A stretch of DNA of 64,000 bases from Stentor roeselii (lineage: Eukaryota; Ciliophora; Heterotrichea; Heterotrichida; Stentoridae), in the NCBI GenBank assembly GCA_006503475.1, contig RSEH01000136.1:1-64000 (forward strand), given 5' to 3'. The position numbers were made by a program, and so were the translations under genes. Shown one piece after another: positions 787-64,000 of the stretch. The notes beneath the pieces are model-generated. The model ran no database searches and had not been told where the DNA came from. It saw nothing but the letters and a program-made list of their open reading frames with translations. Each line of letters begins with the position of its first letter. Position 1 is the first letter of the stretch.

Positions 787-2391
787 TTATATCTTCGAAA
801 CTGGATTGAATTCAATTGTTTTATTATTCACCGAACTAATATTCACTTTGCTAATTCTTTTTAATTCATTATCTATTCTGTAGATTACGTTTTCAATTTC
901 ATTTAAGCTGCAACATGCAATAAAGTAAGTATATTTACCTCTATTGAAATAAGCACTAGAATTTGGAGTATCTTTTATAGTGTGTTTTTCTGTGCATATT
1001 AAATTTTCTTTTGAGTCTATTTCATATAAAAAGTCATCTACAACAATTAACCAGTTTTTTACAAGATACTTCTTTTTATTCGATAATTGCTTAAATTTTG
1101 AGAATTTGTTTTCATTCAGATAAAATTGAAATAAATTTTCACTATCTAATCCACACATAATAATCTTTTTATTTATATAATAGGAACCAATAGAATAATC
1201 ATTTATAGGTAAGTTTTGAACATCATGCCAAGTTTCATATTTAATATTAAACTTACTGCAATGAGTAATTATTTTATCATTTTTCTTTATCGCTCCAAAA
1301 ACAAAAATTTCATTGCTTACTAAACAACCACCTGAAATACTTAAATATTTTAAAGCAGGGAGATATTTAGATTGCTGATCATTAATATTTATAAAACAAG
1401 CTGAAGAAAAACTATCTCCTGTAAGTTTTGGTGATGAACCACCATAAACAAAGTATTTATTAGAATCAATTTTACAACATATACAATCTTTTTGAAATAA
1501 ATGTATTTTAAAATCTATAGTCTTCTTATCAAATTCCTGCAGATCATATAATTTAATATTTCTATCCAAATCTATGGGAAAACAAATAGCATAATTATCA
1601 TCCTCATATATTGAATCAGATTCAATCCATTTTTTATTATTTAGTCTCTTTTCCCATTTAACCAAATTTGATTCAAAAACTACTCTTAAGAATTCTTTAG
1701 CATTATCAACTCCAAAACTTTCATCAATGACAGAATTGATTTTTATGTTTTTAATGATTCCGTCTATTTCTTCATCATTATAATCATTTTTTTTCAAAGC
1801 GTTTAAATCTCTTTTTATTTTCTTAGACTGTTTCATTATTAATTTAACAATAGTCTTAGATTCCTCTAAAATATAAGTAATAATTTCATTAGAGAATGAA
1901 AGAACATCTTGCATTTTCTTGTTTAAAAGATTTCGTTCTTCTTGAAGATACTCTATAATTTTATCTTTTTGAGATCGGAGAGTTTTGGTTTTTGATAGTT
2001 TTTCGATAAGAAATTTCCCGCCAGAGGATATTTGAGAATAATTATTAATGATTGAATTTTCTTCTTTTGAAGCCCTCTCAGATTTCTCAGTTATATCATT
2101 TTTTGCAGCTAGTTTTTTATTTTTATTTTTATTTTTATTTTTTATACAGTTTCCAGAACCTAAAAGTCCTCTACAGAATTGAATTTCTAAGGTATTCTCA
2201 TTTATAAATAGCATTCTTCGAAGTAAAGAATGAGGGTTATTGATTGATAATATTCTGATTAAATTTAAGTCATTAAACATCTGGAAATGCCTTTTCATGG
2301 TATTATCTGCTTGAACAGTCACAAAAACGTATCCAAGATTAGTTAATAATGTTACTGAGTAACCTCCTTTAAGTTGGAGCTTGGTTTCCAT
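787..2391 (-). CDS. Coiled-coil protein with a kelch-like C-terminal half
   Basis: This is a 534-residue uninterrupted frame. Residues from about 95 to 260 are charged and helical, probably coiled coil, and include a poly-Asn/Lys tract (about residues 84-92) encoded by an ATTTTT repeat. The C-terminal half (about 300-520) has blades resembling kelch repeats: YFVYGGSS, a SGGCLVSNEIFVFG motif followed by a W, and IIMCGLD. Kelch propellers are protein-interaction modules, and ciliates have many proteins with zinc-finger or coiled-coil N-termini and kelch tails. No zinc finger is visible here. The GG doublets are poorly kept, so the propeller call is tentative. The first ATG after an AT-rich leader was taken as the start. 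No partner or location can be read from the sequence. Confidence 0.6.
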   Translation of the reverse strand: METKLQLKGGYSVTLLTNLGYVFVTVQADNTMKRHFQMFNDLNLIRILSINNPHSLLRRMLFINENTLEIQFCRGLLGSGNCIKNKNKNKNKKLAAKNDITEKSERASKEENSIINNYSQISSGGKFLIEKLSKTKTLRSQKDKIIEYLQEERNLLNKKMQDVLSFSNEIITYILEESKTIVKLIMKQSKKIKRDLNALKKNDYNDEEIDGIIKNIKINSVIDESFGVDNAKEFLRVVFESNLVKWEKRLNNKKWIESDSIYEDDNYAICFPIDLDRNIKLYDLQEFDKKTIDFKIHLFQKDCICCKIDSNKYFVYGGSSPKLTGDSFSSACFININDQQSKYLPALKYLSISGGCLVSNEIFVFGAIKKNDKIITHCSKFNIKYETWHDVQNLPINDYSIGSYYINKKIIMCGLDSENLFQFYLNENKFSKFKQLSNKKKYLVKNWLIVVDDFLYEIDSKENLICTEKHTIKDTPNSSAYFNRGKYTYFIACCSLNEIENVIYRIDNELKRISKVNISSVNNKTIEFNPVSKI

Positions 2392-5374: not shown

Positions 5375-6337
5375 TTAACTCTCAAAATTTGATTTGATTA
5401 CGAACTCAACCCATTTATCATAAGGTTTCAAACAATGATGTTGATTAAAATAATTCCATCTATCCAAAACCAGCCCTTTTTCCATACTTTTTAAAACCTT
5501 ATCAATTCCATACCCTTTATTCTGAAAAGTATTCCAAATCCTATAACAAGTTTTTTCAACATCCTGACTAAACCTCAACTCTCTTTTAATATTCTCAAAA
5601 GACGAATCAACAACAACTTTAAACCCAAGTCCTAACCTCAACCTCCATTCACGACTCAAACACTCAAAGTCTTCACTTGACTCATCTTCAAATTTCTCTA
5701 AAACATTTTCAAATTCAATCCTCGCAGCACATTTTTCCTTAACAAGAAAATCATTTTCAATTGAAACTTTTTTCATTTTTTTCATAATAATTTTTTTTTC
5801 ATCAATTTCATTTTCCAACTTTTCATTTAATTCCTTTATCTGACCATTCAAATTTTCACATTCTTTTTTACTGTCTAACAAGATTTTAATCCAGTTTTCA
5901 TAAGCATTTTTTATTTTTTTTAGAAGATTTTTATTTTTATCTGTTTTTTCGATGATTTTTTCGAAGATTTCTTGATAAACTTTGAAGACTTCTGAATTAA
6001 TTCCGATATTTTGAGATACAAGGTCGATTTCTTTGAGTTTTGATTCAAGTTCATCTTGTTGTCGAGCTTTTGACTGATAAAAACTTGACTTTTTCGATTT
6101 GAGGACTGGATTCTGCACTCGAAACATGTTGGAGGTTTGAGTTGATTTTAAAGGTTTTATCAGTTCTGGTGAAATGTCTTTGGAAAGGAAAGTTAAACTT
6201 TTTGTCGATGGATTCAAATAAAATGACAGGTCTTTTCGAGGTTCTTTCGTAGTTGACTCAGAGAATGATTGAAGGAAACTGGAATCAGTATCTCTTAAAA
6301 TTAAAGGCTTTGTTGTTTTTGACCTATTAAACGACAT
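5375..6337 (-). CDS. Coiled-coil protein, local paralogous family, copy 1
   Basis: A 320-residue protein. The N-terminal ~90 residues are Ser/Thr-rich and probably disordered, ending in a family motif (RVQNPVLKSKKSSF). About residues 110-150 carry the conserved family core, INSEVFKVYQEIFEKII, followed by LLKKIKNAYENWI; a coiled coil follows to about 215. The core resembles the N-terminal domain of TSNAXIP1-type ciliary proteins (a short helix with VF..Y..F..II, then IK..Y), but this is a pattern resemblance only. Its closest relative is the next minus-strand gene (7225-8250), with which it shares the N-terminal RxxNPVLxSK motif and the C-terminal RWxYxNxHxxLK motif. The gene ends just before the gene-poor left region. 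The function is unknown, probably structural. Confidence 0.7.
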   Translation of the reverse strand: MSFNRSKTTKPLILRDTDSSFLQSFSESTTKEPRKDLSFYLNPSTKSLTFLSKDISPELIKPLKSTQTSNMFRVQNPVLKSKKSSFYQSKARQQDELESKLKEIDLVSQNIGINSEVFKVYQEIFEKIIEKTDKNKNLLKKIKNAYENWIKILLDSKKECENLNGQIKELNEKLENEIDEKKIIMKKMKKVSIENDFLVKEKCAARIEFENVLEKFEDESSEDFECLSREWRLRLGLGFKVVVDSSFENIKRELRFSQDVEKTCYRIWNTFQNKGYGIDKVLKSMEKGLVLDRWNYFNQHHCLKPYDKWVEFVIKSNFES

Positions 6338-14491: not shown

Positions 14492-15433
14492 TCACACTAA
14501 ATTTTTTAAGTTAATAGGTTTATGGAAGTAATCACAAAAACTACAAGCATTAGGCAATTTTCTATACTGCTGAATTTCCTCACACTTCATACAAACCATA
14601 GTTTCCGCATAGACCCACTTATGATTTTCCTTTAAATCATGGCAAATATTGCAGCAATAATATTCCTTACAGCACTGAGGAATGACCCAATAAGTAATCC
14701 CAACATAATGTCGACATTCATAAGGAAAGTCCAATGACAACAAATGAACCTTTCCAAAACATTTCACAGCTTTTTCCAGTTCTCCAAATTCATCCGAGAT
14801 TTTAATTTTAAAATTGAACTGAACCAGTTCATCATTCTGAGGCTTTTGCAGTTCATCAAAAAAGGCATCATCCGCAAGAGATTCATCGATTTTTCTCTGA
14901 AGTTCTTTTCTAAGTTGAACTAAATCATCAAGGTGTATCTGTAAAAGCTTTAAAGTGTCTTTTGTGTGATTTTTTACCTGTTCAATCATTTCGTCCTGCC
15001 TGTTGTCCAAGGTTTCCTTGACCCGATCAAAGAGTTCATAAATCTCTTCAATAGCTTTATCTCTCAAATCACTAACTTCAAATATTTTTTGTTGATTTTT
15101 CACGATCAGGGTGTCTAAACTCTCGATTTTTTCTTTTCCTTTCTCAGAAATTAATTTATTTTTCTGTTCTTGAGTCAATTTCAAGAACTTCAACTTATTT
15201 TCCAAAGGAATCACTCTCTCTATCAGGTCAAGAATAGTAAAACAATAAGAAATCTCAGTGATTCTTCTAGAGTCCACCTTTTTATCTAAGGGACAAGCGA
15301 TTTCTCCAAAAGTCTTCTGCAAGTTCTGGGCACAAGCTTTACAAATGCTATGTCCACAACTAAGAACAAGTGGAATATGTTCATTTCGAGCGTATTCTTC
15401 TCCACAAATGGGGCATTCGATGATATACTCCAT
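14492..15433 (-). CDS. RING / coiled-coil / CHY zinc-finger protein, likely E3 ligase
   Basis: A 313-residue protein. An N-terminal C3HC4-type RING has C7, C10, C26, H28, C31, C34, C47 and D50 (CPIC...CGHSICKAC...CPLD). Residues about 60-210 are coiled coil. The C-terminus (about 238-304) fits a CHY zinc finger: C240-x-H242-Y, a CC pair at 254-255, CNICHDLKENH, CMKCEEIQ and CSFC. In RCHY1/Pirh2 the CHY finger is N-terminal and the RING follows; here the order is reversed and the CTCHY domain is missing. The RING suggests ubiquitin ligase activity, although Asp at the last zinc position is unusual. The RING resembles that of the PIMT fusion at 52957. The gene is divergent from the one at 15454, with only 20 nt between start codons. 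Confidence 0.75.
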   Translation of the reverse strand: MEYIIECPICGEEYARNEHIPLVLSCGHSICKACAQNLQKTFGEIACPLDKKVDSRRITEISYCFTILDLIERVIPLENKLKFLKLTQEQKNKLISEKGKEKIESLDTLIVKNQQKIFEVSDLRDKAIEEIYELFDRVKETLDNRQDEMIEQVKNHTKDTLKLLQIHLDDLVQLRKELQRKIDESLADDAFFDELQKPQNDELVQFNFKIKISDEFGELEKAVKCFGKVHLLSLDFPYECRHYVGITYWVIPQCCKEYYCCNICHDLKENHKWVYAETMVCMKCEEIQQYRKLPNACSFCDYFHKPINLKNLV

Positions 15434-47546: not shown

Positions 47547-50500
47547 TTACATTGTTTCAGAGATACAACTTTCATAATTAATATTGAATCTCATGCGTCC
47601 TGCAGCAGCAGTATCAATAATATTAATCAATTGAATATTTTCGTCCTTTTTCTTTCTCCTAATAAATCTTTTATAAACCAAAAAGACCACAATCAAGACA
47701 ATAACAAAAACCACCAATACAGCAACAACCGCAATAACAATAACATTATGAGAAAAATTTGTAGAACTTTCACTATACTTCGTTTGTGTGATAATCACGA
47801 GAAACTCACTAGAATTCTTAGAAGTTCTAGAATTCGAATATCCAATCTTCATTCTAAAGTGACTTGTTCCATATTTTTTAACCATTTTTTCATATTGACT
47901 TAAACTCAAAGCCTGAATCACAAGACTTGGTTTTGAAATATTAAAGATATACATACTTGCATTAGTAGCTCCAATAGATGTAAAGGTATTTTCATTTAAA
48001 AACCTGGTTTTAGCAGAGATATAGTCTTCATTATAATAAAAATCAATGAATTTTAAATAGCTGCTGTACATTGAAGAGAGTAGGTCAACGATTCTCAGCT
48101 GATAAATCGAATTATTCATTGATTTATAATAAACTGACAGATATCTCGGCTGATAGTAATTGGAACATGTGATAAGTGACCCCGGCAAGTTAAAATTTTC
48201 CTGATAAAACGGTTTATAGCTAAACTGATACGAAAGACTGTTATGGAAGTGGATGTAATAAGAATGAATGTAAGTCAAGTTACTCAAAGAATACAACATC
48301 GACCCACAGACTCCAACAGAAAAAATCGTCTCAGATGTAAACTCGACTCCTTTCATCAAACTAATCTTTCCATCTTCAATCAAAACATTCCAAATCCCAT
48401 AGAATATATCGCTAACAAATAAATAAACAGACCCTTTGCAATTTTGAGATGATTTAAAAGTTCCATCTGCTGAACTGATCAGCATCGCTTTCAGGTTCAT
48501 GCTGCTGAAGTTAATTATCGTGAGTGGTTCAAAGGTAACTGTTTCTTGCCATTTTCCTGAATAAACTACAAGATTATTGTTTATCGGGTAGTAAGGGTCA
48601 TAAGGGATGTCGATGAAAAGAATGATGAAACAGGAGCTGCTTGAAGGAATCACGTTTATCCAACTTATCTTGTGATCGACCCCGAACTTAAAGGAATTTA
48701 TTATTGTAAAAGAATTGAAATCGAAAATAATAAAAATAAAATATTTGGCTAGTGCTTCATAGGAAAAAATGGACTCTTTGGAATATGTGAAATAGGTTTT
48801 TGTTTCGGTGCAGTCTAAGACAAATAAGGATTCTGAGGATTTTGTTGATATGTAGTTTATTGTGCTGCAGTAACCTGAAGAGTTAAAATAGTTGGAGGAT
48901 GGAATTTTTGAATGGAAGGTGAAGGAATTTGAGACTGTTTCGACAGATAAAAGATAAATGTTTATAGAGTCGGGTAAAAGAACTAGAAAGATGTTTTTAT
49001 CTCTTATTATATCATGGTCGATAAACTCATTTTCTGGTTCGTTGTAAGTTATATTTGAAATTCCATTGTTTATGATTATTGGAAAGTCAGGATCTTGCAC
49101 AAGTGAATCATTTACATAAAGCACACTAGAAATATCAAATCCTCTAAACTTCTTTTCAAGTGAGTAATAATAAGCAAAATTGTACTCATTAACAATTTCT
49201 TTATTTTCTAACTCATCATCTTCAAAAAAAATTTCAAATGAATAAATAATCAATTCAATATTCGAGTATATCTCTTCGAATGAATCAGAACCATTAACTT
49301 TAGCTTTGAGCTGAAGGTTAACAACCCCATTTTCTTCTTTTTCGTAATTCAAAGACTTTATATTTAGCTGATATGAATTTCTGCATTCAAATTGGCATTC
49401 ATAAAAATAAACATCAGCTTTATTTTCACATAAAATCAAGACAGAATCAGTTGAAGTTAAAAGATTGCATGACCCTATGTGAACTTTTCCTATGAAACTT
49501 TGAACTATAGGATTAATTAAAACAAAAACGTAAAGAAAATCATCAATTTTTAAATAAAGTGTTTGGAAGATGTTTGAAGCTGCTGAAGCCTTTCCTGGTA
49601 AAAGGATTGTATTGATTAACATTAGTGAATCGTCGTAAACTAGAATGGAGTTACTTATGGCGAAGATTAAATTATCACATGATAAGATAAATTGTGAATT
49701 TGCTGGAATTGATATTTTTTCGATAAAATCGCCATTATAAATGAACTTGTATAGCGTTTTTGTAGTAAGGATATATAATATCTCGACATCATTTAGTACA
49801 CTTAAAGCCATAGTTATATCAATAATTTTCTCTCCATTAGTTATATCCTTTAAAGTATAATTTGTTGGTCTTTCTGCATTTTTATAAACTTGTAGCATAG
49901 TATCATTAGCACAAAAGGTATAATCAAAAAGCGATTTGAACAAATCCGAACAGTTATATAAAATAGTTTGATTGATAATTATTGAATTATCCACAAAGTC
50001 ATAAAATATAATATTATTTTCATAGAGTATTTGCAAAGTTGACCCCCCTGTTATATTAATCGGATCTGTTTGATTAATAACAATCTCTTCATTTTTATAC
50101 ACTCCTTGTGAATCTAATAAATAAAGTCCTTTTTCATACAATCCATATGAGTAATTTCTACTCAAATTCATACTAATAAGATCACTTAAATAAGCATATT
50201 GAGGTACAATATCAAAATCAATAATATTTTCATCAGGTTTCACAATTTCAACACTTAAGTTCCAACCAGCCACAATTTTAAACAAGTCAAAATAAATGGG
50301 TTGTTGAAGAGAGTCCAAGTAATTGATAAAAGTATTATTTTTGCTTGTTTTTCGATAATAATTAACCAAATTTACCTGATTATTATCATCAATAATCTCA
50401 AGAATTAAAGTACTGCAAACTTTTGAAGATTTATCCTCTGCAGTGATTTCGAATGTGTCAGCATGACTGGTCGATATCAAAAAAATAGGCTCCTCGAATA

Positions 50501-51704
50501 AAAGGTTTAATAGTTCTAACTGGGTTGAATTCGATATGATTACATAATACTCATCTATTCCGGAAATAATGTTTATTGTATTGTTGTTTGAATCAAAGGG
50601 AATCGAGGATACCGCTCTTATTGAATTTATACTAAATGTATATATTCTTAGCTCCTTCCAGATGTTTGAGTAAAGGAATAGGTGAGGATTTAGAATCGAA
50701 ATTGAAGCTTCTTCAGGAATTTCAAGTCGAAAAAAAATACTTATTTCTGTGGGTTCATAGTTGAATGTTGCTATTCCTTCAGTGGTTATTATTCCAAAGT
50801 TCGTTAGAGTGTAAAACTTTTTAGGGTTGGGTATTTGGAATTTTAGTGGAGTGCCTATTAATTCCATTGAAATCTTTGTATTTTGGATGTATAGTCCACT
50901 ATTCATCTTGAAAATAATCAAGTTTTTTGTTTGGTCGATAAGGTAAATGTGGTCATAGACTATCATCATATCAACTATTTCAAGAGGAACAATATCAGTC
51001 GAGTTATCTCTAAAAAAGCTACAAATTTGCTGTGTAATAAAAACACTATTATAATTATAATGTCCTACAAAAATCATAGATTTCCCATATAAAGTTCCCC
51101 AAAAGTAAGGAAATGTCAAGTCTTGAACAACAACTTTCAAGTTTTCGACATATCTCAAGTCCCAAATTTTTACTCTATGATAAAATCTCCTTAGTGGCAA
51201 ATATAAGCATAACATTTCATTAACACTAATATTTTTTCCATTAACATTTTCAATCCCATTGATGATAAGGAAAAAGTCAGGAAGATTGACTCCACCTCCG
51301 ATAATTTTCGCATCAATCAAAGAAGTAGTGATATTATCTCCGATATGATAAGGATTTACTTCAACTAAATCAAATAAATAGATGAAGTACTCAAGACCTT
51401 TAGCTATCAAGAACTGGCAACTTTCTCTTTGGATATAAGAGTGAATTACTTTTCCATCTATTTTCGTTGCCTGAGAGTATATGAAAGTGTTTAAAGAGGA
51501 TAGTGAGTAGTTATTTGATAGGTATATAGTTTCTCCTTCGCTTGATTTGATCGAATAGTTTAAGAATGAGCCTTGGAAATAATCATAAAAGTCCAAAGTT
51601 ACACTCTCGTTTATATTGACGTACATTGTTCCGAATTCTTTCAATAAATCTGCTGCTTGACATGGAAGGACTGAAAGAAAAAGATATAACAATAGCTTTT
51701 GCAT
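47547..51704 (-). CDS. Giant type I surface glycoprotein, paralog A
   Basis: A 1385-residue protein. It has a signal peptide (MQKLLLYLFLSVLPCQA), a huge extracellular part and one C-terminal TM (IVIAVVAVLVVFVIVLIVV) with a short basic cytosolic tail (RRKKKDENIQL). The ectodomain is rich in beta-strand patterns, Asn-glycosylation sites and repeats of hydrophobic-aromatic blocks, like a chain of beta-propeller or cadherin-like units. A cadherin-like piece CSTLILEIIDDNN lies near the middle. It shares its whole layout and several local motifs with the gene at 54636-58901: N-terminal G(T/E)(M/I)(Y/F) segment, central VCS(T/D)L block, a KKYGTSHFRMKIGYSN segment near the end. The family was not recognised. 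A receptor or cell-surface coat role is likely. Confidence 0.7.
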   Translation of the reverse strand: MQKLLLYLFLSVLPCQAADLLKEFGTMYVNINESVTLDFYDYFQGSFLNYSIKSSEGETIYLSNNYSLSSLNTFIYSQATKIDGKVIHSYIQRESCQFLIAKGLEYFIYLFDLVEVNPYHIGDNITTSLIDAKIIGGGVNLPDFFLIINGIENVNGKNISVNEMLCLYLPLRRFYHRVKIWDLRYVENLKVVVQDLTFPYFWGTLYGKSMIFVGHYNYNSVFITQQICSFFRDNSTDIVPLEIVDMMIVYDHIYLIDQTKNLIIFKMNSGLYIQNTKISMELIGTPLKFQIPNPKKFYTLTNFGIITTEGIATFNYEPTEISIFFRLEIPEEASISILNPHLFLYSNIWKELRIYTFSINSIRAVSSIPFDSNNNTINIISGIDEYYVIISNSTQLELLNLLFEEPIFLISTSHADTFEITAEDKSSKVCSTLILEIIDDNNQVNLVNYYRKTSKNNTFINYLDSLQQPIYFDLFKIVAGWNLSVEIVKPDENIIDFDIVPQYAYLSDLISMNLSRNYSYGLYEKGLYLLDSQGVYKNEEIVINQTDPINITGGSTLQILYENNIIFYDFVDNSIIINQTILYNCSDLFKSLFDYTFCANDTMLQVYKNAERPTNYTLKDITNGEKIIDITMALSVLNDVEILYILTTKTLYKFIYNGDFIEKISIPANSQFILSCDNLIFAISNSILVYDDSLMLINTILLPGKASAASNIFQTLYLKIDDFLYVFVLINPIVQSFIGKVHIGSCNLLTSTDSVLILCENKADVYFYECQFECRNSYQLNIKSLNYEKEENGVVNLQLKAKVNGSDSFEEIYSNIELIIYSFEIFFEDDELENKEIVNEYNFAYYYSLEKKFRGFDISSVLYVNDSLVQDPDFPIIINNGISNITYNEPENEFIDHDIIRDKNIFLVLLPDSINIYLLSVETVSNSFTFHSKIPSSNYFNSSGYCSTINYISTKSSESLFVLDCTETKTYFTYSKESIFSYEALAKYFIFIIFDFNSFTIINSFKFGVDHKISWINVIPSSSSCFIILFIDIPYDPYYPINNNLVVYSGKWQETVTFEPLTIINFSSMNLKAMLISSADGTFKSSQNCKGSVYLFVSDIFYGIWNVLIEDGKISLMKGVEFTSETIFSVGVCGSMLYSLSNLTYIHSYYIHFHNSLSYQFSYKPFYQENFNLPGSLITCSNYYQPRYLSVYYKSMNNSIYQLRIVDLLSSMYSSYLKFIDFYYNEDYISAKTRFLNENTFTSIGATNASMYIFNISKPSLVIQALSLSQYEKMVKKYGTSHFRMKIGYSNSRTSKNSSEFLVIITQTKYSESSTNFSHNVIVIAVVAVLVVFVIVLIVVFLVYKRFIRRKKKDENIQLINIIDTAAAGRMRFNINYESCISETM

Positions 51705-52956: not shown

Positions 52957-54597
52957 CTAAGAACCCGGGCACTGTTTTTCACGATCAGTAAGAGGTGCAT
53001 AGCAGACATTGAAACAATTGGCATAATCCATACTTCCATCCATTTTTTTCCTTCCAACAGTGATATGCTGAACACTCGAAATCTGTCCGACAGGAGCAAT
53101 GATGACTCCTCCAAATGCAAGTTGATTGATCAATGCCTTAGGAATCTCAGGGGTAGAAGCTCCAACATGAATAACATCAAAAGGTGCGAATTCAGGTAAA
53201 CCATTCCTTCCATCACCATGAACCATTCGAATAGAAATATTTTCCCCATTGACAAGTTCAGGATTAGAATTGTTGATATTTTCAATAGCGATGTTGATGA
53301 GTTCTTCAATGTGGTCCAAGCCGAAGACACTTCCACTGCCGATCATCTTCGCAAGGCAAAGCGTGAGGTACCCGCTGCCAGACCCCACGTCTAAAACCTT
53401 TATGCCCGGCTTGAGGTAGTCTTCGAGAAGTCGTAAAGTGTGGGCATGCATGTGGGGAGCTGATATCGTCGTCGAGTAACCAATCTTCTGTGGACGGTCC
53501 TCGTATGGACGTGATTCTTTAGGCATGAATAGCTTTCGGTCTGTTGACTCGAGAATTGAACGGATTTTTGAAGACATCTCGATACCGTCATCTAGAAGTT
53601 GTTGAACGAGATCTAATTGCTCCCTGCTTATTGACTCTGATATTGAAGAAGGTGGGCAAAGGGAAAGTTTTAAAGAGTCTTCGAATTTTTTTTGGATTGG
53701 GAGATTTGGGTCAGGTTGGTTTGGAGGAGTAGGGGATTCTAGTGGGAGTAGGGATATCAGGATTTCTTTTGGGTTTATTTGGATTTTGAAATCGACCTCT
53801 GAGAGGGTTGTGATTAGGTCTGTTATTTCGGGTTGTTTTGTTTCGAATGAAAGGTCTATCTGGTTAGTTTCTTGGTAGGCTTTATACCTGGCAGAGCTTG
53901 CTAGTTTTCCAATTTTCTTTTTGGTTTGATTAAATTCTTGGATAGTTTTTTGATTTCTGATAATAACTTCATCACACTCCTCCACAACTTTTTGTATTTT
54001 TCTTGCCACTGAGTTGAATTTCCCGTTTAAGTCGCTTATGAACTCTTTTCTCTTATTATTGATCATGTCAACAATTACATCAAAACTTTTATTAATATTC
54101 TCCAGTTCATTATTCTTTTTCACCTCCATAATTTCAAAAAATTTTGAGACCTGTTCCCTTTCTTTTTGCGATCTTTCTAAATTCATCTTAGCAGTATCAA
54201 CTTTAGAAGCTAGGTCCTTATCAGTTCCTAAAGTGATGACTTCATCATCAATATTGTAGAAATCATGAAATTTATGCATAGTGACACATTTTAGACAGAA
54301 AGGCGAGTTGTCTGTTAAACAAAAGAAAATCGATTCAAATCCTGGATGACCCGAGCAAGGAACAGTAGGACCAGCGTTAGTATTAGTAAGATACTGACAC
54401 ACGATGATGTTTCTTTTCATAATTGACATCTCACGGTAGTCCAGACCTCTGCATAACGGGCAATGAAGGGCTCCCATTCGTCTTTCTGAGCTTTGGATGC
54501 AACTGGAGCACAAGGTGTGCCCACAGTGGAGAATCAAAGGCACTTGGTGAATTGAGTTGAAGTCATGGAAGCATATCGGGCAGGATAGAGACTCCAT
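52957..54597 (-). CDS. TRIM-like (RING, B-box, coiled coil) protein fused to isoaspartyl methyltransferase
   Basis: A single uninterrupted 546-codon frame. The RING at 6-49 has C6, C9, C25, H27, C30, C33, C46 and C49. A canonical B-box2 at 81-111 has C81, H84, C93, D96, C101, C104, H108 and H111. A coiled coil spans about 125-245. Residues ~325-546 are a complete protein-L-isoaspartate O-methyltransferase: ISAPHMHAHTLRLLEDYL, SAM motif I VLDVGSGSGYLT (401-412), GLDHIEELI, HGDGRNGLPEFAPFDVIHVG, APVG and YAPLTDREKQ, all close to human PCMT1. The enzyme part should repair isoaspartyl residues, while the RING part should recruit an E2. The pair suggests that damaged proteins are either repaired or ubiquitinated. 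The RING resembles that of the gene at 14492. The stop is TAG. Confidence 0.92.
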   Translation of the reverse strand: MESLSCPICFHDFNSIHQVPLILHCGHTLCSSCIQSSERRMGALHCPLCRGLDYREMSIMKRNIIVCQYLTNTNAGPTVPCSGHPGFESIFFCLTDNSPFCLKCVTMHKFHDFYNIDDEVITLGTDKDLASKVDTAKMNLERSQKEREQVSKFFEIMEVKKNNELENINKSFDVIVDMINNKRKEFISDLNGKFNSVARKIQKVVEECDEVIIRNQKTIQEFNQTKKKIGKLASSARYKAYQETNQIDLSFETKQPEITDLITTLSEVDFKIQINPKEILISLLPLESPTPPNQPDPNLPIQKKFEDSLKLSLCPPSSISESISREQLDLVQQLLDDGIEMSSKIRSILESTDRKLFMPKESRPYEDRPQKIGYSTTISAPHMHAHTLRLLEDYLKPGIKVLDVGSGSGYLTLCLAKMIGSGSVFGLDHIEELINIAIENINNSNPELVNGENISIRMVHGDGRNGLPEFAPFDVIHVGASTPEIPKALINQLAFGGVIIAPVGQISSVQHITVGRKKMDGSMDYANCFNVCYAPLTDREKQCPGS

Positions 54598-54635: not shown

Positions 54636-57600
54636 TTATCTGGTATTTAGGTTCTTGATACCCGAGTACTTCTGGAGGTTTGATTTAAACATTTGAAGCT
54701 TTACCACCCTAGGGTGCATATCAATAGGAATAGTTTTCGATTTTTTTTTAAAAATTTTTTTATATGCTAAGACAGTGATAAAAATAATAAGCGGTATAAA
54801 TACTCCTGGAATTAGTAAATAGTAATAATTGAATATATTTTTATTTTTGCTATTTGATTGAAATCTCTGAGGACCAGATCTAATCAAAATGATGGGTGAA
54901 GAATTGATTGTGTTACCTAAATGCTGAAGTTGGATAACCATTTCAAATTCATTTTTCGAGTATTTTTTTATCATGTTTGAGTAGTTCTTTTTGCTCATAA
55001 CCGGAAATAAAAGTGTTGCTGGACTAAGAAAAAGAACTGACATTGCCAGGTTATTGTTATTTAAATAGATCAAAAAACTATCATTGAGGAAAAGACTTTT
55101 GGTCTTTTTAATCAAACAGTCTGTGCAGTAAATATCAATATCTGACATAACTGATGAATTAAAAGTCGACTTCCAACTAATTATTCGTAGTTTATAGTGA
55201 GAATTTGATGTCGAATTCTTTAGTAAATAGCTGGTGTATGAAGGGAAGTAATAGTTGGAGCAGGAGATTGATGAACTGATCCCTGAAAACTCATCAAGAG
55301 GACTTGCAGGGTGAGTATTGTAAAGTTGTAAATATATGTCCTCTATTGAAAATGTTACAAAGTAAGTCTTTGATGTTGTCACGAACAATAAAGTTCCACA
55401 AACTGATACAGAAGTTGGAGTATCTTGGTAAAAAGGGACATTTTGGATAATTGAAACTTGGAAATTATTTACTTTCAATACCCTTATTCCGAAATAAGCA
55501 TCAGCTGCGTAAAGAATGATAACTTCTTGGTTATATAGTTCAGTTGCCTGCTGGTAAATTCCGGCAATACTATGCGCAAAGAACTTCGGCAGCATCAATG
55601 AGTAAAAATCAATACAATTATATAGCGTTAAGAAATAAGCTCCAGGGTGAAACCAAACCCCTTTATACAAATAAATATAATTATTTCTGACCCCGATTAT
55701 AGGAGTTCCAATGACTATCAAGAAGTGTTTCAAATCAGCATTAATAACCTGTACAAAGCTGACATTATAACTGATTTCACAAGAAAGAGACAAATCAATA
55801 GTATGATTAACCAAGTCATACTGAAACAACACGATATTTGTCGAAGATTCATTAACTTGCAAAACCTGCCCATCATAATAATCTTCATACAAAAAGTACT
55901 CCGAACAAATACTAACAAATAAACAATGATCATTAGTTCTCGAAACCTGCTGAATATATTGACAAGTCCCATTAAAAATCTCAGTAATATAAAAAAAATA
56001 CGAAGGACTCAAATTCTTAACATGAGAAAAGTTAAATCCTTGAATTTTATCAAAAACCAGCAACTTTTCAATTGTCAAGACTAAAACAAGGTCTGATTGT
56101 TCAACAATAACAAAGTCAAGAATCGTCTCTGATGATTTAAACTCATTCGTTTTCGTCACTCGGTCAATCATTATAACTGGAGAGGTCAAGATCTCAGAAG
56201 GGTCGCTGAGGTTGACTTTCTGATTATTGATAAGAAGGGTAGAATTAAGATTATAACCATTTATCAGGTACTCCAGTGAAACTGAACTTTGCTCGTTGTA
56301 AGCGATTCCTAATGTTTTTGGGTAACTTTCTGGGTCAAAAAAAGTAGCTGCTGCGTAAGTGAAGATTTGGAATGTCAAGTCGAGTGTCACCTGGGAAGAC
56401 TTTGATTTGATCATCACTGGAACTTTCATTTCGTAGTTGCCTTGATTTACTGATGAAATGTTGGAAAGTGTAAAGTAAACAATACTTGGACTTAAACATG
56501 TTGGAGGACATGTTGTTCGGATTAGTTCAATTGTGAAAGGGCAGAGAAGGAGGTAGAAATTGAACTGGTATCCTGACATTAGGCAGTCTGAGGTTGATAT
56601 GGTTAATGGATTTTCTCCGATTTCAGGAGCCTCGATGTCATAAACTAGGATTTGTTTGTCATATTGTAAAGAAAGGATGTTTATTACCATTTTCACACTC
56701 AAATAATTCGGATCTATTTTTATTTGCTTTATCTGCATTGTCATCATTAGGTCGTAAACACTGAGATATTCACCTCCCAAAATGCAAACTATTCTAGAAT
56801 ATGCGAAAACTCGATGAGCTTCAACATATAATTGATTTACTTTTACTAGTTCTTGATCGTTTAGCTCAAAGGTTATAATAGAATTTTTGGTTAATACAAA
56901 CACATAAAAAAAGTTAAAATACGGACTTTGTGTAATTGTAAAATCAATGATCGTTTCATTAATAATTGAATACTGGCTGAAACTTGTAAAACTTGTGATC
57001 AAAAACAAGTTATTTTGAGAAGCGCACATAACAAGTTCATCAACAATCCGAAGATAGAGACAATTATCAGGCAATATAAGTATCGTTGAATTTTCGATAA
57101 ACCCAGAATAAAAAAGTAAAAATCCTGGATAAAGAATAACTATTTCCTTACTAATATGATTTTTGGCATTCAAATCCAAAGCATCAGGAAAATCATTCAA
57201 AAGAGTGAAGTTAACATAAACAAATCCAAAGTTATCAATCAAATAATAATCAAACCCATAATACCCTCCATTCACATACTCATTGTAACTCGTAATCTTG
57301 GGCAACCTCGTGAGCACATCATACTCCTGAGTATAAAAACTGAAATATTCATCACTAGCATTATCGAAAATATAATGAATATTAGATCCGATCATATAAT
57401 TTTCCGCATAAAAAGCTATAAACACCTTTTCAGTATAAAAATAAACTTCAATATCAGTCCCAGTCAGATTTCTATATCGATTTAAAATCAAAGGACCTGT
57501 CGAGTTCGTGATGTTTATAGTCAAGTCACTGCATACCTCGCTTTTCGCATTTTTTCCGCAAAACTTCACTATTGAAGAATTTTCACTTTTGACCTGAAAG

Positions 57601-58901
57601 TAAAAACTCGCAATTGACAAAGACAAAAGATTCACTCCTGAAACATCTTGGATCATTAAGTAATATTTTTCGTTGAAGTCAGGAACTACCAGCCAAGGGC
57701 AAGGAAAAGAAAGGTCAGGCATCAGTGATTTTAAAGACACTTGAAAGATCAGCTCACTGTGATAAGAAAAAATCATAAAAATGCAAAAAATTAAGTCATC
57801 TCCTGAAGTGTAAGAGGAAAAAAAGTAAGGATAAATACTTTGACTTAATGTTAAATTTTCAGAAGAATGATTGTTTATAAGAGCGAACTCATTTGAGTTA
57901 TAATTTATGCCGTATATTATGATAGTCTTCTCAGTTATAACAGGCAGTAATTCATTTTCCAGTGAATTTTCGTAAATCACTCCGAATCTTTGAAGTACTC
58001 CGAAGTTGGTCATGTTATTCACCCCGTTTTCAACGAAAGTTCCATTATCATAATCATATATAAAAGTCGCTATGAAATTAGGATGATTCATGATTAGCAA
58101 AGACCCTCCCTGAATAACTAAATCGATTGGCATCGGCTTGTTTTCAACAAAAGAATCATTGATGAATAAATAATAAGTATGAATCAACTGCACAATCTTC
58201 AAAAGTACTGGGTCGTCCATCTCATAAATAATAATAAATCCTCCTTTATGATAATATTCACTGATCACGCCAACAGCTAAACAGTCTAACTGACTATGTC
58301 CAAGAGTGACAAAATCATGATACTTAAAATCCCAGCTTCCTTCACTTTTTCTGAGATTGTCTAAATTCAAGTTGAAAAAAAGTATTTCAAAAGATTCGAA
58401 CTCATAAAATTCTGGAGATTTATAAACTTCAGGACATATCAAACATTTGATTATCTCGACCTTAGCTACTAAAATAATCACCCAAGACCTTGTTTTCACT
58501 ACTTGAATAATTTTCCCTTCGATAAGAACTTCTAATATTGAATACTCTCGTATCAGCTCAATAGTTCCTGATGTAGGAGAAAGTTGATAAATCCAAAGAT
58601 TGGTATCATTGTAGAATATGAATTTATTTGAGTTATTCTGGAACCAGATAGGAAATCTGGTCGATGCTGAATTGTTTCCTCCTGGAGTGGAATAGAAAGA
58701 TGTAGGGAATAATTTTGTCTCATTGTTGAAAAAGATCACTGGACCTGGGGATTCAAAAAAGACTGAAAAATTTTGGCCTTCTCCGGAGAAGTAAGTCAAG
58801 ATGTTGTCTGTGTAGATCTCGTTTGGTCTTAAGAAGATCTCTCCCAATGGATTCTGTAGTGATGTTGAAATCGCTTGGGAAAAGAGTAGGAGAAAAAACA
58901 T
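54636..58901 (-). CDS. Giant type I surface glycoprotein, paralog B
   Basis: A 1421-residue protein. The signal peptide is MFFLLLFSQAIST, and the single C-terminal TM is LLIPGVFIPLIIFITVLAY followed by KKIFKKKSK. The ectodomain is very rich in aromatic and beta-branched residues and in N-glycosylation sites, with few cysteines (a CPPTC pair near the middle). It aligns in layout with paralog A at 47547-51704: similar length, signal-TM topology, the VCSDLTINITNS block (compare CSTLILEI in A), FPVMSKKNYSNMIKKYSKNE near the TM (compare YEKMVKKYGTSHFRMKI) and a short basic tail. The two are separated by two other genes. The function is unknown; ciliate surface or adhesion protein is the best guess. 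Confidence 0.7.
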   Translation of the reverse strand: MFFLLLFSQAISTSLQNPLGEIFLRPNEIYTDNILTYFSGEGQNFSVFFESPGPVIFFNNETKLFPTSFYSTPGGNNSASTRFPIWFQNNSNKFIFYNDTNLWIYQLSPTSGTIELIREYSILEVLIEGKIIQVVKTRSWVIILVAKVEIIKCLICPEVYKSPEFYEFESFEILFFNLNLDNLRKSEGSWDFKYHDFVTLGHSQLDCLAVGVISEYYHKGGFIIIYEMDDPVLLKIVQLIHTYYLFINDSFVENKPMPIDLVIQGGSLLIMNHPNFIATFIYDYDNGTFVENGVNNMTNFGVLQRFGVIYENSLENELLPVITEKTIIIYGINYNSNEFALINNHSSENLTLSQSIYPYFFSSYTSGDDLIFCIFMIFSYHSELIFQVSLKSLMPDLSFPCPWLVVPDFNEKYYLMIQDVSGVNLLSLSIASFYFQVKSENSSIVKFCGKNAKSEVCSDLTINITNSTGPLILNRYRNLTGTDIEVYFYTEKVFIAFYAENYMIGSNIHYIFDNASDEYFSFYTQEYDVLTRLPKITSYNEYVNGGYYGFDYYLIDNFGFVYVNFTLLNDFPDALDLNAKNHISKEIVILYPGFLLFYSGFIENSTILILPDNCLYLRIVDELVMCASQNNLFLITSFTSFSQYSIINETIIDFTITQSPYFNFFYVFVLTKNSIITFELNDQELVKVNQLYVEAHRVFAYSRIVCILGGEYLSVYDLMMTMQIKQIKIDPNYLSVKMVINILSLQYDKQILVYDIEAPEIGENPLTISTSDCLMSGYQFNFYLLLCPFTIELIRTTCPPTCLSPSIVYFTLSNISSVNQGNYEMKVPVMIKSKSSQVTLDLTFQIFTYAAATFFDPESYPKTLGIAYNEQSSVSLEYLINGYNLNSTLLINNQKVNLSDPSEILTSPVIMIDRVTKTNEFKSSETILDFVIVEQSDLVLVLTIEKLLVFDKIQGFNFSHVKNLSPSYFFYITEIFNGTCQYIQQVSRTNDHCLFVSICSEYFLYEDYYDGQVLQVNESSTNIVLFQYDLVNHTIDLSLSCEISYNVSFVQVINADLKHFLIVIGTPIIGVRNNYIYLYKGVWFHPGAYFLTLYNCIDFYSLMLPKFFAHSIAGIYQQATELYNQEVIILYAADAYFGIRVLKVNNFQVSIIQNVPFYQDTPTSVSVCGTLLFVTTSKTYFVTFSIEDIYLQLYNTHPASPLDEFSGISSSISCSNYYFPSYTSYLLKNSTSNSHYKLRIISWKSTFNSSVMSDIDIYCTDCLIKKTKSLFLNDSFLIYLNNNNLAMSVLFLSPATLLFPVMSKKNYSNMIKKYSKNEFEMVIQLQHLGNTINSSPIILIRSGPQRFQSNSKNKNIFNYYYLLIPGVFIPLIIFITVLAYKKIFKKKSKTIPIDMHPRVVKLQMFKSNLQKYSGIKNLNTR

Positions 58902-59361: not shown

Positions 59362-62300
59362 CTAACTAAGAGTATTCTTATTTAATTCAAATGTAAATGT
59401 TGTATCACTTGCAGGGGTAACCTTTTCATTCTTTTTACATAATTTCGATCTAAAGAAACTAACTATTTGAATAGTAGATTTCACAATATTACTGAAAATA
59501 TTAACTGCTAAGTTAATGATAATAACTTTGATTGCTAACAAAGCTATATTTTCAGAACCAACATCAACGATTCCTAATTCATTAATTGAAACAGTAACAT
59601 AAAATAAAAGAAGCAGTATTTCATTAATCAATAAAACAAAATTCATCGAGTTATCCTTAAATGGCTTGATTAATGCAAGGTAAAACAGCATCTATTTATT
59701 TTTTACCATCAGACAAAACGAAATACCGACCATAAGCTGAATGATTCCATTGCTAAACATAATCAAAACTGACAAAAAGATTCTTCTAGTCAAAAAAATT
59801 AAGTAAAACAAGCAATAATTCCATTTCTTACAATCAAATTCTTCGTAAAGACAATAAAAATAAGGATATTGTTCTTGAATCTCTTCAGTTGTTTTAGGAA
59901 AATTGATTTTTGTTATTAAAAGGACATAGATTCCGCAGCAGGCAAATACAAAAAGCTGAATAATCCTTACAATTATCACAACACAAAAGAAAGTATCAAA
60001 AAAACTGATTGAGTCATCAAAACCAGTGTATCTTAGGCTCAGCAGAGTAAAAACGCCGAAATCAAAGCAACTTTGCAAACAAATACGAAAAAACCATCGA
60101 AAGTAAACAAATTGTTTTACCTTCAAACAAATAGATTTGAATCTTGCATTTTTAACACAATAAGAGAAAAATTGAACTAAAATTGTAAAAATAAGTGTGA
60201 GAATTAAAAAAGCAGTTAAAAAACCTCCGTTAACAATAAAGAAACTTGAATCAATTCCATATAAAACAAATTTTTCAGGTAATCGATGCTCATTTGTTTT
60301 TATCGGAAGCCGAACTGTCGGAATTTTCGATGAAGTTTTCAAGCTGACAACGAATTCAACAAACTTTTGATGAAATTTAACATCAAAAAGCAACGCATAA
60401 GAAAACATCTCAACCAAGTTAAGCAAATTAAAGATCATTGTAGGGTTCATTAAAATTGCTCCTGAACATAAAGCTGAAGTGGCAGCTGCAGTGGTCAGAG
60501 TTTTTCCAGTATTTTGAAGATTTTCAATATTTTCAAGAGTTTCTTGATTTACCTGATCAAACAATTTGACTTGGAAATCTGATTTATTGAGACTTGCGCC
60601 TTGATCAGAAGTAAGATTTTTATTGAAATCGATTTTTAATTTTCTGTTTTTCTCATTTTTTAAAAATTCAGGGATTGAAACTTCCGCATTGTAAACTTTC
60701 AAGTTTTGCATTGTTACTTGAAGAGGAACATTAAAAGAATTAATCGACGCTTTTATATAATCAGTCTTTAAAGGTATCAAGAGATTTTCTTGAAAAAAAA
60801 TAGTGATCAAGTTACTTTCTGATATTTTTAATTCAACTGAAAAATAAAGTTTCAAACATTTTTCATTTTTTTCTTTATATCCGAAAACACATTTACAGGA
60901 CTGGTTGATTGAAAGGTAGCTATTTTCCTGACAAATTAAACAACTTGAATCATTAAGACATGAAATGCAAAGATTACTGCATTGATGACATTTTCCAGAT
61001 GAGTAAAAAAATCCTTCTTGACAATAACATTCATTTTTACCTGCCAGGAGATGTGATTGAGGATCACAGTACAAACATTCCGTTCCATTCCAATAGTAAA
61101 GAGAAGAACATACGCAAAGACCATCAGAATTTCGAATAAGCCCAGACTTGCATTTTATACATTCTTCAGAACTCGACCCTTTGCATGAAAGGCAGGATTC
61201 ATGACACTTGCTGCAGTGAGACTTGTTCCAGTAATAAGAAACTTTGCAAACACAGTCATTTTCTACCATTTCAAGATATAAAGAAGGGTCACAGTAAACA
61301 CAAGTCCCATTTTTCAGCGAAAAATTAAATTCACAATGACAGGAGTTGTTTGATGAAAGGATTAAATTTGATGTGCATGAAAGGCATTCATTTTCTGATT
61401 GACCGAAACAACTCATGCAAAGATTGTGACAAGGTTGGCAGAGATGGCTGGAAAGATAGGTTTTTGATGGGCAGATACATGAAGTTTTTGAAAGGACTAG
61501 ACTTGATTTACATGATAGACATTCGGATTCTGATGGTCCGAAACAACTGGTGCATAAATTGTGGCAGGATTCACATCTTTCATTTGATAAAAAAGTCTCG
61601 TTTGGACAAATGCAAGAGTTTTTGGTTGATTTTATTTGGTTTGATTTGCAGGAAATGCAGTCAGTTTCTAGTGGACCTGAACAAGATTCACATGATGAAT
61701 GGCACAGCTCACAGCTCCCATTTGAAAGAAAGAATCTTTCAGGACATAAACATGAATTGTTTACAGATAAAACAAGATTTGACTTACAAGAGAGACACTC
61801 ATTATCATTAGGGCCTGAGCAGCTCATGCACTTTATTCCACATGCTTCACAGTGGTCAATAGAAAAAAAAGTATCTTCTGGGCATAGGCATGAATGATTA
61901 TCACTAAGAATCAAGTTTTTTTTACATGAAAGACACTGAGTTTCCAAAGAACCTGAGCAGTTGTTGCAAAGAGAATAGCAAGGCTCACAATAATTACCTG
62001 ATAAAAATGTATTCTCTGGACATTTGCATAAGTTGTTTTCTGTAAGAATTAGGTTGGCTTTGCATGATAGACATTCAGTTTCTAGTCTACCTGAACAGCT
62101 CTTGCATAAAGATGCGCAGGCCTCGCAAGAATTATTTAAGAGAAAAGTACCTGATGAACATATGCATGAATTGTTTTCAGTTAGAAATAAGTTTGCTATA
62201 CATGAAAGACATTCGTTGTCTGAGGGACCTGAGCATAATTGACAATTCTTTCCGCATGGTTCACAGTTTTGATTTAAGAGAAAAGTTCGTTCTGGGCAAA

Positions 62301-64000
62301 TGCATGAATGATTAGCACTCATGATAAAGCTTTCTTTGCATGATAAGCAATCAGTTTCTAATCCACCTGAGCAGTTTCCACACAATGAATAACAATCTTC
62401 ACAATAATTATTTAACAAGTAACTTCTCTCTGGACACACACAAGACTGATTCATGCTCAAGACAAGATTATCTTTGCATGAATAGCATTGATTATACAAT
62501 CCTCCAAAGCATCTACTACACAATACACTGCAATTTTCACATTTATTCCCAGACAAAAATGTTCCTTCAGGACAAACACACGAAAATTCAACAAGAGAAA
62601 ACCCATCAAAACACCTAAGACATGTAAAAGAGTTGCTGCATTCAAGACATTGACTCGAGCAAGGCAAACAAGAAGGTCCAAGTTCAAAAAACATTTCAGG
62701 ACATACACATTTATGACCTTCTAACACTTTAGAACCATAACAAGACTCACAATTATCAAACAAAGGTCCATAACAAGTCTTACAAGCAGCATCACAAGCT
62801 TCACAAACTTCATTTCCAAGGTAATAACCTGCAAGACATTCACAAAATGTTCCATTAAAAGAAGAGTTCGATTTGCATAATGAACAGTTTTGAATTGATT
62901 GACACTCTGCGCAGTTTTTCATACATTCTTTGCATTTTGCTTCAGAAGAATTCCAGTATAAGCCAGAGTTACATTCGCAAATTGCTTTTTTTGTAGAGTT
63001 TTCTTGGCATTGATTACAACTTGTGTTGAAAAAAGAACAGTTGGAACAAATTGGGTCTAAGCAAAGGTTACAGTCTGATTTTCTGACACATCCTTGACTA
63101 CAAGATGTCAAACAAGGCTCGCAAGAGGAGTTTGAATAGAAAGAGTTGATTGAGCAGTTCCAAAGACAGTTGATCATGGAAGAATTAAAACAGACAACAG
63201 GGGCAAAAGTACTTCCGCCATCAGAGGTAACAACAACTCGCCAAATAAAGCCTTTAAAGCCTCCATTGGCAGATCCTATGCGAATAGGTGTAAAATAATC
63301 ATCAAAAACAAAATATTGATTTACTGCCACACTTGAACCTGCTGTGTCACTGACTTTAATAATATAAAACTCAACATAAACATACCCAGCAACCATCAAT
63401 TGTATCCAAGTTTCACTTTTAACTCTATTAAAGTAAAGTGTTATTTGTTTATAAATAAATGTAACATTGGAAGATATTGATAAAGAATCTTTCGAGATCA
63501 AAAGTCCAACCTCGTCCTGTCGAATCCAAAGCGAGATTGAAAAGTTATTTGAAAGTGCAATATTCGAAGTATCTACAAACGAAGATCCGTTGAAATAAAA
63601 CCCTCTCGAACTTGCAGGAATCGGGTCATTTTCACCTGAAACTGGAAAAAACCTTTCATCAAGTCCTGTACTGAACTGATTATTAAAAGAATCGTTGAAC
63701 TTGTCAGCGATTTTACTGAAAGTGACATTCAATCTAACTTTATTACTTCCAGCGATGCAGGTCTTTTGGTTGAGTGTAAACCCTGATGGGCAGTGAAAGG
63801 TGCATAAAGAGCCAACAAGGACATACCCAGCTGAGCACTTTGTGCATAAATAAGAAGTGTTTCCATGGCAAGCCAAACATCTCTCATCACAGCAAGAACT
63901 GTTATTTTCACTTAAATGAAAACCTGGAACACATGGGTTAGCTTCTAAGTCAACAACACAAGAATTGTTGAAATTATCACAAACTGGGCATCTTACATTT
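59362..64000 (-). CDS. Giant cysteine-rich protein with LamG-like domain and polytopic C-terminus (5' partial)
   Basis: The frame is open at the right window edge, so the 5' end is missing. Exons 64000-59707 and 59691-59362 give about 1540 visible residues. Order: a cysteine-rich start (63,995-63,730), a LamG/concanavalin-like domain (about 63,720-63,180; RGFYFNGSSFVDTSNIALS, FSISLWIRQDE), then a chain of more than 15 furin/GF-receptor-like cysteine repeats of about 45 residues (63,160-60,850; unit CxxCxGxxExECLSCKxNL). A membrane-proximal domain and a C-terminal block of about seven or eight TMs follow (about 60,480-59,400). This architecture is common in ciliates. A surface receptor or adhesion role is likely. 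The last TMs depend on the intron being removed. Confidence 0.8.
59692..59706 (-). other. 15-nt intron in the cysteine-rich membrane protein gene
   Basis: On the minus strand GTAAAAAATAAATAG, with A at position 10. Removal joins ISFCLM to MLFYLALIKPF, continuing the TM block; retention ends the protein at the splice-site TAG. Confidence 0.85.
60850..63160 (-). repeat. Tandem cysteine-rich repeats within the coding region
   Basis: More than 15 units of about 135 nt each encode CxxCxxLCxxCxGxxExxCLSCKxNLxLSxNxSCxCPE-type modules. The central units (about 61,350-62,500) are most alike, so recent unequal duplication within the gene is likely. Confidence 0.75.

What the first reader, a model, noticed from the sequence alone, without database searches (positions are those of the whole stretch)
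52957..54597. TRIM-like RING/B-box/coiled-coil protein fused to a complete isoaspartyl methyltransferase
One uninterrupted reading frame joins a ubiquitin-ligase front half (RING and canonical B-box2 ligands all present) to a full PIMT with intact SAM motif and substrate loop. Established knowledge: animals have PCMTD1/2, where a PIMT-like domain recruits a Cullin-RING ligase through a SOCS box. Here the ligase is in the same chain by an unrelated route, which suggests a repair-or-degrade switch for aged proteins that evolved independently. I know of no described TRIM-PIMT fusion.
Basis: partly seen in the sequence, partly recalled or inferred. Interest (0 to 1): 0.85.

Follow-up and report, generated by a model that had tools for sequence, protein, structure and literature searches.

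The report
Ubiquitin-ligase fused to protein-repair methyltransferase
A single-celled eukaryote, probably a ciliate, has one gene that joins a TRIM-type ubiquitin-ligase front end to an apparently intact enzyme that recognises aged (isoaspartyl) proteins, which may let one protein either repair damaged proteins or tag them for destruction; nothing of this has been tested in the cell.

Summary
Window 52957-54597 (-) is one 546-aa standard-code frame: C3HC4 RING (6-50), B-box2 (81-113), proline-free stretch (114-255), proline-rich tether, complete PIMT (328-541) over the curated TIGR00080 equivalog cut-off. There is no Met between 178 and 341, so no separate start for the PIMT. An assembly join is unlikely: two more loci of this 44-Mb genome, one intact and one broken, carry a Cys/His module and long linker before a PIMT, and their PIMTs form a clade with the window's (99/98), apart from two standalone PIMTs. 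Between those two loci the Cys/His module is the most constrained part (dN 0.072, dS 0.734). But they have no recognisable RING or B-box. The window N-half belongs to a large RING/B-box set whose C-termini are elsewhere Kelch (3 of 10 scanned) or PHR (2 of 10): PIMT sits in the recognition slot. Most likely a TRIM-like E3 whose receptor is a working PIMT, so clients are repaired or ubiquitinated; all activity is inferred. A tethered repair enzyme with an incidental or self-regulating RING is a live rival. New variant of a known kind.

The parts
52957..54597 (-). whole gene: 546-aa RING / B-box / helical / PIMT protein, one uninterrupted frame, ATG to TAG
54448..54582 (-). C3HC4 RING finger, residues 6-50, all eight ligands
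   Evidence: Pfam RING_UBOX E 2.2e-8; phmmer to the TRIM32 RING 36.8 bits, E 2.5e-8, and to a tandem RNF4 chain E 4.1e-9 (22.5 bits per RING)
54259..54357 (-). B-box2 zinc finger, residues 81-113
   Evidence: ligand pattern; Pfam zf-B_box 21.8 bits, below cut-off, 27.4 bits, above; own-genome B-box profile 57.4 bits, the window sequence being one of its 16 rows
53833..54258 (-). proline-free stretch, residues 114-255, likely coiled coil
   Evidence: heptad score reached by 1 of 300 shuffles; partial alignment along TRIM72
53617..53832 (-). linker, residues 256-327, prolines clustered at 276-300; contains no Met
52975..53616 (-). complete PIMT domain, residues 328-541, with TISAPHMHA (377-385), VLDVGSGSG (401-409), GLDHI (426-430)
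   Evidence: Pfam PCMT E 7.7e-64; TIGR00080 181.5 bits, cut-off 159.05; PIMT structure 1i1n E 4.2e-54; positions

Best explanation
It is a TRIM-like RING E3 ligase whose C-terminal substrate-recognition module is a catalytically competent eukaryotic-type protein isoaspartyl methyltransferase. Shown by sequence: the order RING, B-box2, proline-free stretch, tether, PIMT in one frame; intact zinc ligands and PIMT motifs; the same kind of N-half carrying Kelch or PHR modules elsewhere in the genome. Inferred: the coiled coil dimerises the chain, the PIMT captures proteins with isoaspartyl (or C-terminal Asn) sites and methylates them, and clients that stay bound or return are ubiquitinated by the RING, coupling repair with removal of what cannot be repaired.
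For: One open frame with no internal PIMT start. PIMT passes the equivalog cut-off and keeps the TISAPHM loop; its S379 aligns to chain position 59 of 1i1n, which is S60 of PCMT1 if the chain lacks the initiator Met, and PCMT1 S60A is described as catalytically inactive (PMC11974815, section 8 read). RING passes a Pfam cut-off and matches TRIM32 and RNF4 RINGs; R50 follows the last ligand, as in RINGs that activate E2-ubiquitin (recalled). N-half relatives: 38 of 45 own-genome rows match only within residues 1-285, many of them to the RING alone; of 10 scanned, 3 end in Kelch, 2 in PHR. The PIMTs of the window, C390 and C309 form a clade 99/98, with the standalone C38 and C198 outside it. Precedents linking PIMT-type proteins or deamidated clients with ubiquitin: PCMTD2 with CUL5 (PMC10798966, passages), PCMT1 making a cereblon degron (PMC11974815, sections 3 and 8), a deamidation-mimicking 4E-BP2 form ubiquitinated through CUL4B (PMC6915327, passages).
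Against: No transcript, protein or activity data. The two paralogous PIMT loci have no recognisable RING or B-box, so the ligase is not a shared part of the family, and the window N-half could not be shown homologous to theirs. Five of 10 scanned RING/B-box proteins have no recognised C-terminal module at all. E2-interface residues were judged by recall only.
Confidence: 0.5

Rival explanations
1. A tethered repair enzyme: the N-terminal module and helical part place or multimerise a working PIMT at a site in the cell, and the RING of this copy regulates the enzyme itself (self-ubiquitination) or is incidental. Ubiquitination of damaged clients is not the function.
For: The paralogues C390 and C309 have a Cys/His module, long linker and PIMT without a recognisable RING; between them the module is the most constrained part (83% aa identity; dN 0.072, dS 0.734, 60 codons), then the PIMT (dN 0.162, dS 0.802), then the linker (dN 0.373, dS 0.624) (NG86; YN00 gives 0.094 and 0.471 for the module).
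Against: The window RING keeps all ligands and passes a Pfam cut-off; the N-half belongs to a set of RING/B-box proteins some of which carry recognition modules. C309 is broken, so the constraint measured partly predates its decay. The C390 and C309 linkers show no significant heptads (31 and 22 of 300 shuffles reach the score).
Confidence: 0.28
2. A degron writer: the PIMT converts C-terminal Asn or isoAsp of clients to a cyclic imide, and the same chain or another ligase then degrades the product, so methylation marks for destruction rather than repair.
For: Human PCMT1 makes C-terminal cyclic imides that cereblon reads, and the S60A mutant does not (PMC11974815, sections 3 and 8). Here the catalytic loop is intact and a RING is in the same chain. 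The three own-genome Yippee-family frames found are 112-117 aa, so no cereblon-sized reader was seen (that model may miss cereblon).
Against: No reader of imides is recognised in this chain, and nothing ties its substrates to C-terminal Asn. [quoted passage not shown]
Confidence: 0.12
3. A PCMTD-like case: the PIMT fold serves only as a binding module for a ligase and has no methyltransferase role.
For: PCMTD1 binds AdoMet but showed no isoaspartyl activity (PMC10798966, PMC11514484, passages); the C309 copy has a changed active-site loop.
Against: The window and C390 PIMTs pass the TIGR00080 equivalog cut-off and keep TISAPHMHA; the PCMTD1 chain 9oma matches the window protein at E 6.4e-5 against 4.2e-54 for 1i1n.
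Confidence: 0.08
4. Artefact: two neighbouring genes joined by an assembly or frame error, or a frame that is not translated as one.
For: No reads or transcripts could be examined; frames here are packed tightly (38 bases to the same-strand frame upstream).
Against: No Met start for a whole PIMT half; two further loci with a Cys/His module before PIMTs that are the nearest relatives; constraint on both ends of those.
Confidence: 0.02

Closest known systems
TRIM/RBCC E3 ligases (TRIM32, TRIM72, TRIM21)
   Same: order RING, B-box2, helical stretch, C-terminal module; RING and B-box ligands; one TRIM72 chain aligns over its residues 11-302
   Different: C-terminal module is a PIMT, which is not among the animal TRIM classes as I recall them; descent from a common ancestor with animal TRIMs untested
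PCMT1 / PIMT repair enzymes (1i1n, TIGR00080)
   Same: complete domain, active-site and AdoMet motifs, groups with eukaryotic PIMTs (100/99), over the equivalog cut-off
   Different: 1i1n is a 226-aa chain; here the PIMT is the last part of a 546-aa ligase-like chain
PCMTD1/PCMTD2 (PIMT-like domain with SOCS box, CUL5 partners)
   Same: PIMT fold tied to ubiquitin ligation
   Different: recruits a cullin ligase in trans by a SOCS box, and PCMTD1 lacks detected activity (PMC10798966, PMC11514484); here a RING in cis, no SOCS box, active-site loop intact, domain only remotely alike (E 6.4e-5)
PCMT1-cereblon pathway (cyclic imide degron)
   Same: PIMT chemistry feeding an E3 ligase
   Different: two separate proteins in animals (PMC11974815); here one chain and no imide reader recognised

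Membership tests
TRIM/RBCC-type protein (by architecture) | N-terminal C3HC4 RING | tested here: met
   Pfam RING_UBOX 34.4 bits, cut-off 25.2; all eight ligands
TRIM/RBCC-type protein (by architecture) | B-box2 zinc finger after the RING | tested here: met
   ligand pattern complete; 21.8 bits, below cut-off 24.1; 27.4 bits, above,
TRIM/RBCC-type protein (by architecture) | coiled coil after the B-box | tested here: inconclusive
   heptad score reached by 1 of 300 shuffles and partial TRIM72 alignment; no structure model could be made
TRIM/RBCC-type protein (by architecture) | common descent with animal TRIMs | not tested
   the own-genome RING/B-box tree is unresolved and held no animal rows
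TRIM/RBCC-type protein (by architecture) | ubiquitin ligase activity | not testable with these tools
   needs an assay
Protein isoaspartyl methyltransferase (PIMT/PCMT1) | full-length domain over curated cut-offs | tested here: met
   PF01135 215.8 bits, cut-off 20.3; TIGR00080 181.5, cut-off 159.05
Protein isoaspartyl methyltransferase (PIMT/PCMT1) | catalytic loop with Ser and AdoMet motif | tested here: met
   TISAPHMHA 377-385 and VLDVGSGSG 401-409; alignment to 1i1n
Protein isoaspartyl methyltransferase (PIMT/PCMT1) | activity on isoaspartyl peptide | not testable with these tools
   needs an assay
PCMTD1/2 | C-terminal SOCS box | tested here: not met
   chain ends at 546, PCMT match ends at 541; no SOCS_box among the 25 of 30 Pfam rows shown

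The most novel reading that the evidence does not exclude
A protist lineage, probably ciliate, has built a self-contained damage-triage enzyme: a RING E3 whose substrate receptor is itself the enzyme that repairs the damage it recognises, so that the outcome of each encounter (methyl ester and repair, or ubiquitin and destruction) is set by how long the client stays. It arose within a family of PIMTs carried on longer chains and independently of the animal PCMTD and cereblon links.
Probability: 0.3. Interest if true: 0.8.

Novelty: new variant of a known kind. Interest (0 to 1): 0.62.

Why it matters
How cells choose between repairing and destroying isoaspartyl-damaged proteins is open. Animals show separate links between PIMT-type proteins, or deamidated clients, and ubiquitin, each made of more than one protein; here a protist puts an intact-looking PIMT and a RING in one chain, which makes the choice testable with one purified protein and one gene knockout.

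Tried and rejected
Ciliate code 6 (TAR=Q): rejected, because the frame meets a TAG just after the PIMT core and tubulin frames carry no internal stops in 21 of 23 matches. Calling the paralogues' Cys/His module a B-box: not supported by Pfam at E up to 0.5 nor by a profile of 16 own-genome RING/B-box rows (best domain 1.5 bits for C309, -1.8 for C390); B-box-like spacing is by eye only. A RING lost upstream of C390 or C309: none seen by eye in the fetched flanks. A tree of RING/B-box N-halves to find the donor: 13 rows (the window and 12 of 36 loci; the rest dropped as duplicates or for not matching two ligand patterns), 8 of 10 inner branches open, of no use. The five weakest of the 12 PCMT rows (E 2.8e-4 to 8.1e-4) were not studied. 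Prokaryotic relatives: 41 loci from genome contigs; 8 of 41 served as outgroup in the tree and 27 of 41 in the alignment, made for a structure job that was not accepted. Two of the 41, L081 and L058, were looked at for a fusion; no RING or B-box frame was seen by eye in their frame lists (frames of 60 aa and 100 aa up; no domain scan was run), and L081 is cut off by its contig end. Viral contigs: 49 pattern hits, 0 relatives. Naming the species: 18S search unanswered four times. An alpha-tubulin matches best to chains 6u0h, 8g3d and 5ubq, then 7miz (the call names no organisms); I recall the first three as Tetrahymena and the fourth as an apicomplexan, so 'ciliate' rests on that and on recall.

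Literature: 'isoaspartyl methyltransferase' with 'RING finger' and 'B-box' 0 papers; 'TRIM', 'tripartite motif', 'ciliates', 'B-box' 0; 'ciliate', 'B-box', 'kelch', 'RING' 0; 'tripartite motif' with 'isoaspart' 17 papers, 10 listed, none about a fusion by title and abstract start; any 3 of 'PCMT domain', 'RING domain', 'domain architecture', 'protist' 15 papers, none of which holds 'PCMT domain'; 'protein-L-isoaspartate' with 'ciliate' 7, none about a fusion by title; further listings on PCMTD1, isoaspartate with E3 ligases, and cereblon were seen in part (13 of 13, 20 of 31, 20 of 49, 12 of 53 listed). The library holds PubMed Central papers under three open licences only. Such a fusion may exist unremarked in a protein database.

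Full report
What is there. The window is the first 64 kb of contig C44 of a 44.39-Mb eukaryotic assembly of 522 contigs. On the minus strand 52957-54597 is one open frame of 546 codons, ATG to TAG, with a stop directly before the ATG. The longest stop-free stretch in 1000 shuffles of the region was 205 codons. Frames of 150 aa and more are closely packed (29 in the window); the same-strand frame upstream ends 38 bases before this ATG, and a convergent 200-aa frame without a Pfam match ends 143 bases after the stop. The standard code fits: of 23 tubulin matches in the genome 21 have no internal stop, and the four tubulins read in full end in TAA.

Domains. RING 6-50, B-box2 81-113, a proline-free stretch 114-255, a linker 256-327 with prolines clustered at 276-300, and PIMT 328-541. 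The RING is above the Pfam cut-off of RING_UBOX; the B-box is slightly below in one scan and above in another. The PIMT is complete, aligns with the PIMT structure 1i1n over residues 328-543 at E 4.2e-54, and passes the curated TIGR00080 equivalog cut-off, 181.5 against 159.05 bits. The loop TISAPHMHA holds S379, which aligns to chain position 59 of 1i1n, that is S60 of PCMT1 if the chain lacks the initiator Met; PCMT1 S60A is described as catalytically inactive (PMC11974815, section 8). One TRIM72 chain aligns to residues 3-299 of the window protein at E 8.5e-6, weakly along the coiled coil; other TRIM72 chains reach only 208 or 236.

Is the join real? There is no Met between residues 178 and 341, and the PIMT begins at 328, so the PIMT half has no Met start that would leave the domain whole. 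Two more loci of the genome have a PIMT behind a long N-terminal part: C390 (494 codons, intact) and C309 (frame interrupted twice, active-site loop changed, so broken). Both begin with homologous Cys/His-rich modules of about 60 residues, followed by a long linker for which no significant heptads were found (31 and 22 of 300 shuffles reach the score). In a tree of 16 PIMTs the window, C390 and the C309 piece form a clade (99/98); the two standalone PIMTs of the genome, C38 and C198, form another (99/96); the two groups join at 89/91; and these lie with 1i1n, 1r18 and 2pbf (human, fly and Plasmodium as I recall) apart from eight archaeal ones at 100/99, the drawing being rooted at the midpoint and 2pbf a long branch. 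Between C390 and C309 the Cys/His module has 83% amino-acid identity, dN 0.072 and dS 0.734 over 60 codons (YN00: 0.094 and 0.471); the linker 47%, 0.373 and 0.624 over 150; the PIMT 75%, 0.162 and 0.802 over 191 (NG86). So a chain of Cys/His module plus PIMT was kept by selection in a sister lineage of the window protein, at least until C309 decayed. This argues against an assembly join as such, though the N-half is not shown to be the same: neither Pfam nor an own-genome B-box profile finds a B-box there, and no RING is seen.

What the N-half is. Searching the genome with the window protein gives 45 rows, 38 of them only within residues 1-285, many to the RING alone; a B-box search gives 49 matches, all over the cut-off, some two to a frame. 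Ten RING proteins from these lists were scanned: 8 of 10 have a B-box match at E up to 0.001, 3 of 10 end in Kelch repeats, 2 of 10 in PHR domains, and 5 of 10 in nothing recognised; two of the ten were read only to the end of the fetched stretch. A PHR search adds that the frames on C15, C83, C499 and C273 occur in both lists. In an alignment of ten N-halves the invariant ligands are C6 C9 C25 H27 C30 C33 C46 and B-box C81 C93 C101 C104; C49 and H84 are not invariant, H108 and H111 nearly so. So this organism has a large TRIM-like set, and in the window protein the slot used elsewhere for recognition modules holds a PIMT. That is the strongest ground for reading the PIMT as the substrate receptor of a ligase.

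Mechanism. Shown: architecture, intact ligands and motifs, family context. Inferred: dimerisation, E2 binding, methylation, ubiquitination of clients. The model I favour (0.5) is an E3 whose receptor is a working repair enzyme, giving repair or removal. The chief rival (0.28) is a tethered repair enzyme whose RING acts on itself or little at all; it draws on the paralogues without a RING. A degron-writer reading (0.12) draws on PCMT1 making C-terminal cyclic imides that cereblon reads; [quoted passage not shown] A binding-only, PCMTD-like reading (0.08) is disfavoured by the equivalog score. An artefact (0.02) is unlikely.

Comparison with the known. PCMTD1 and PCMTD2 join a PIMT-like domain to a SOCS box and bind CUL5; PCMTD2 is proposed as a CUL5 receptor in T cells, and PCMTD1 showed no isoaspartyl activity (PMC10798966 and PMC11514484, passages read). 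Deamidated 4E-BP2, tested as an Asp-substituted form, is ubiquitinated through Raptor and CUL4B (PMC6915327, passages read). The window protein shares the theme and differs in having the RING in cis, no SOCS box and an intact active-site loop. No paper on a TRIM-PIMT fusion was found in the searches, in a library of open-licence papers only; for only 10 of 17 papers were listed.

Limits. No transcripts, no orthologues from other eukaryotes, no structure model, species not named (18S search unanswered; alpha-tubulin nearest to chains that I recall as Tetrahymena).

Noticed in passing
G000 C309:22685-24226 (L005, L010): A third PIMT fusion copy, a close paralogue of C390, is broken: its frame is interrupted twice and its active-site loop is altered. 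An intact relative exists.
   Followed up: partly
G000 C390:7136-8617 (L004): Intact 494-codon protein of Cys/His module, linker and PIMT without a recognisable RING; its PIMT passes TIGR00080 (166.7 bits, cut-off 159.05).
   Followed up: yes
window 14495-15433 (-): 313-aa protein with an N-terminal RING (E 3.1e-9) and a C-terminal CHY zinc finger match below cut-off (24.8 bits, cut-off 31.3).
   Followed up: no
window 47550-51704 (-) and 54639-58901 (-): Two large, divergent paralogous proteins, membrane-type by eye (23% identity over 1000 columns, E 1e-34), flank the fusion gene on the same strand; no Pfam match over a cut-off.
   Followed up: partly
window 59695-63396 (-): 1234-aa cysteine-rich protein with a weak match to Giardia VSP (25.4 bits, cut-off 31.4); no significant similarity to the neighbouring large protein.
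   Followed up: no
L020 (C15), L022 (C83); L019 (C371), L049 (C112), L033 (C390:116620): RING/B-box-type proteins ending in PHR domains or Kelch repeats in this protist.
   Followed up: partly
G000 C356:82072-82917 (L006): A divergent PIMT-like methyltransferase frame lies directly after a frame with CxxC zinc motifs that looks like an ArfGAP by eye, separated by a stop.
   Followed up: no
window 1-6000: G+C of 0.23-0.26 at the contig start against 0.35-0.42 in 20-46 kb.
   Followed up: no
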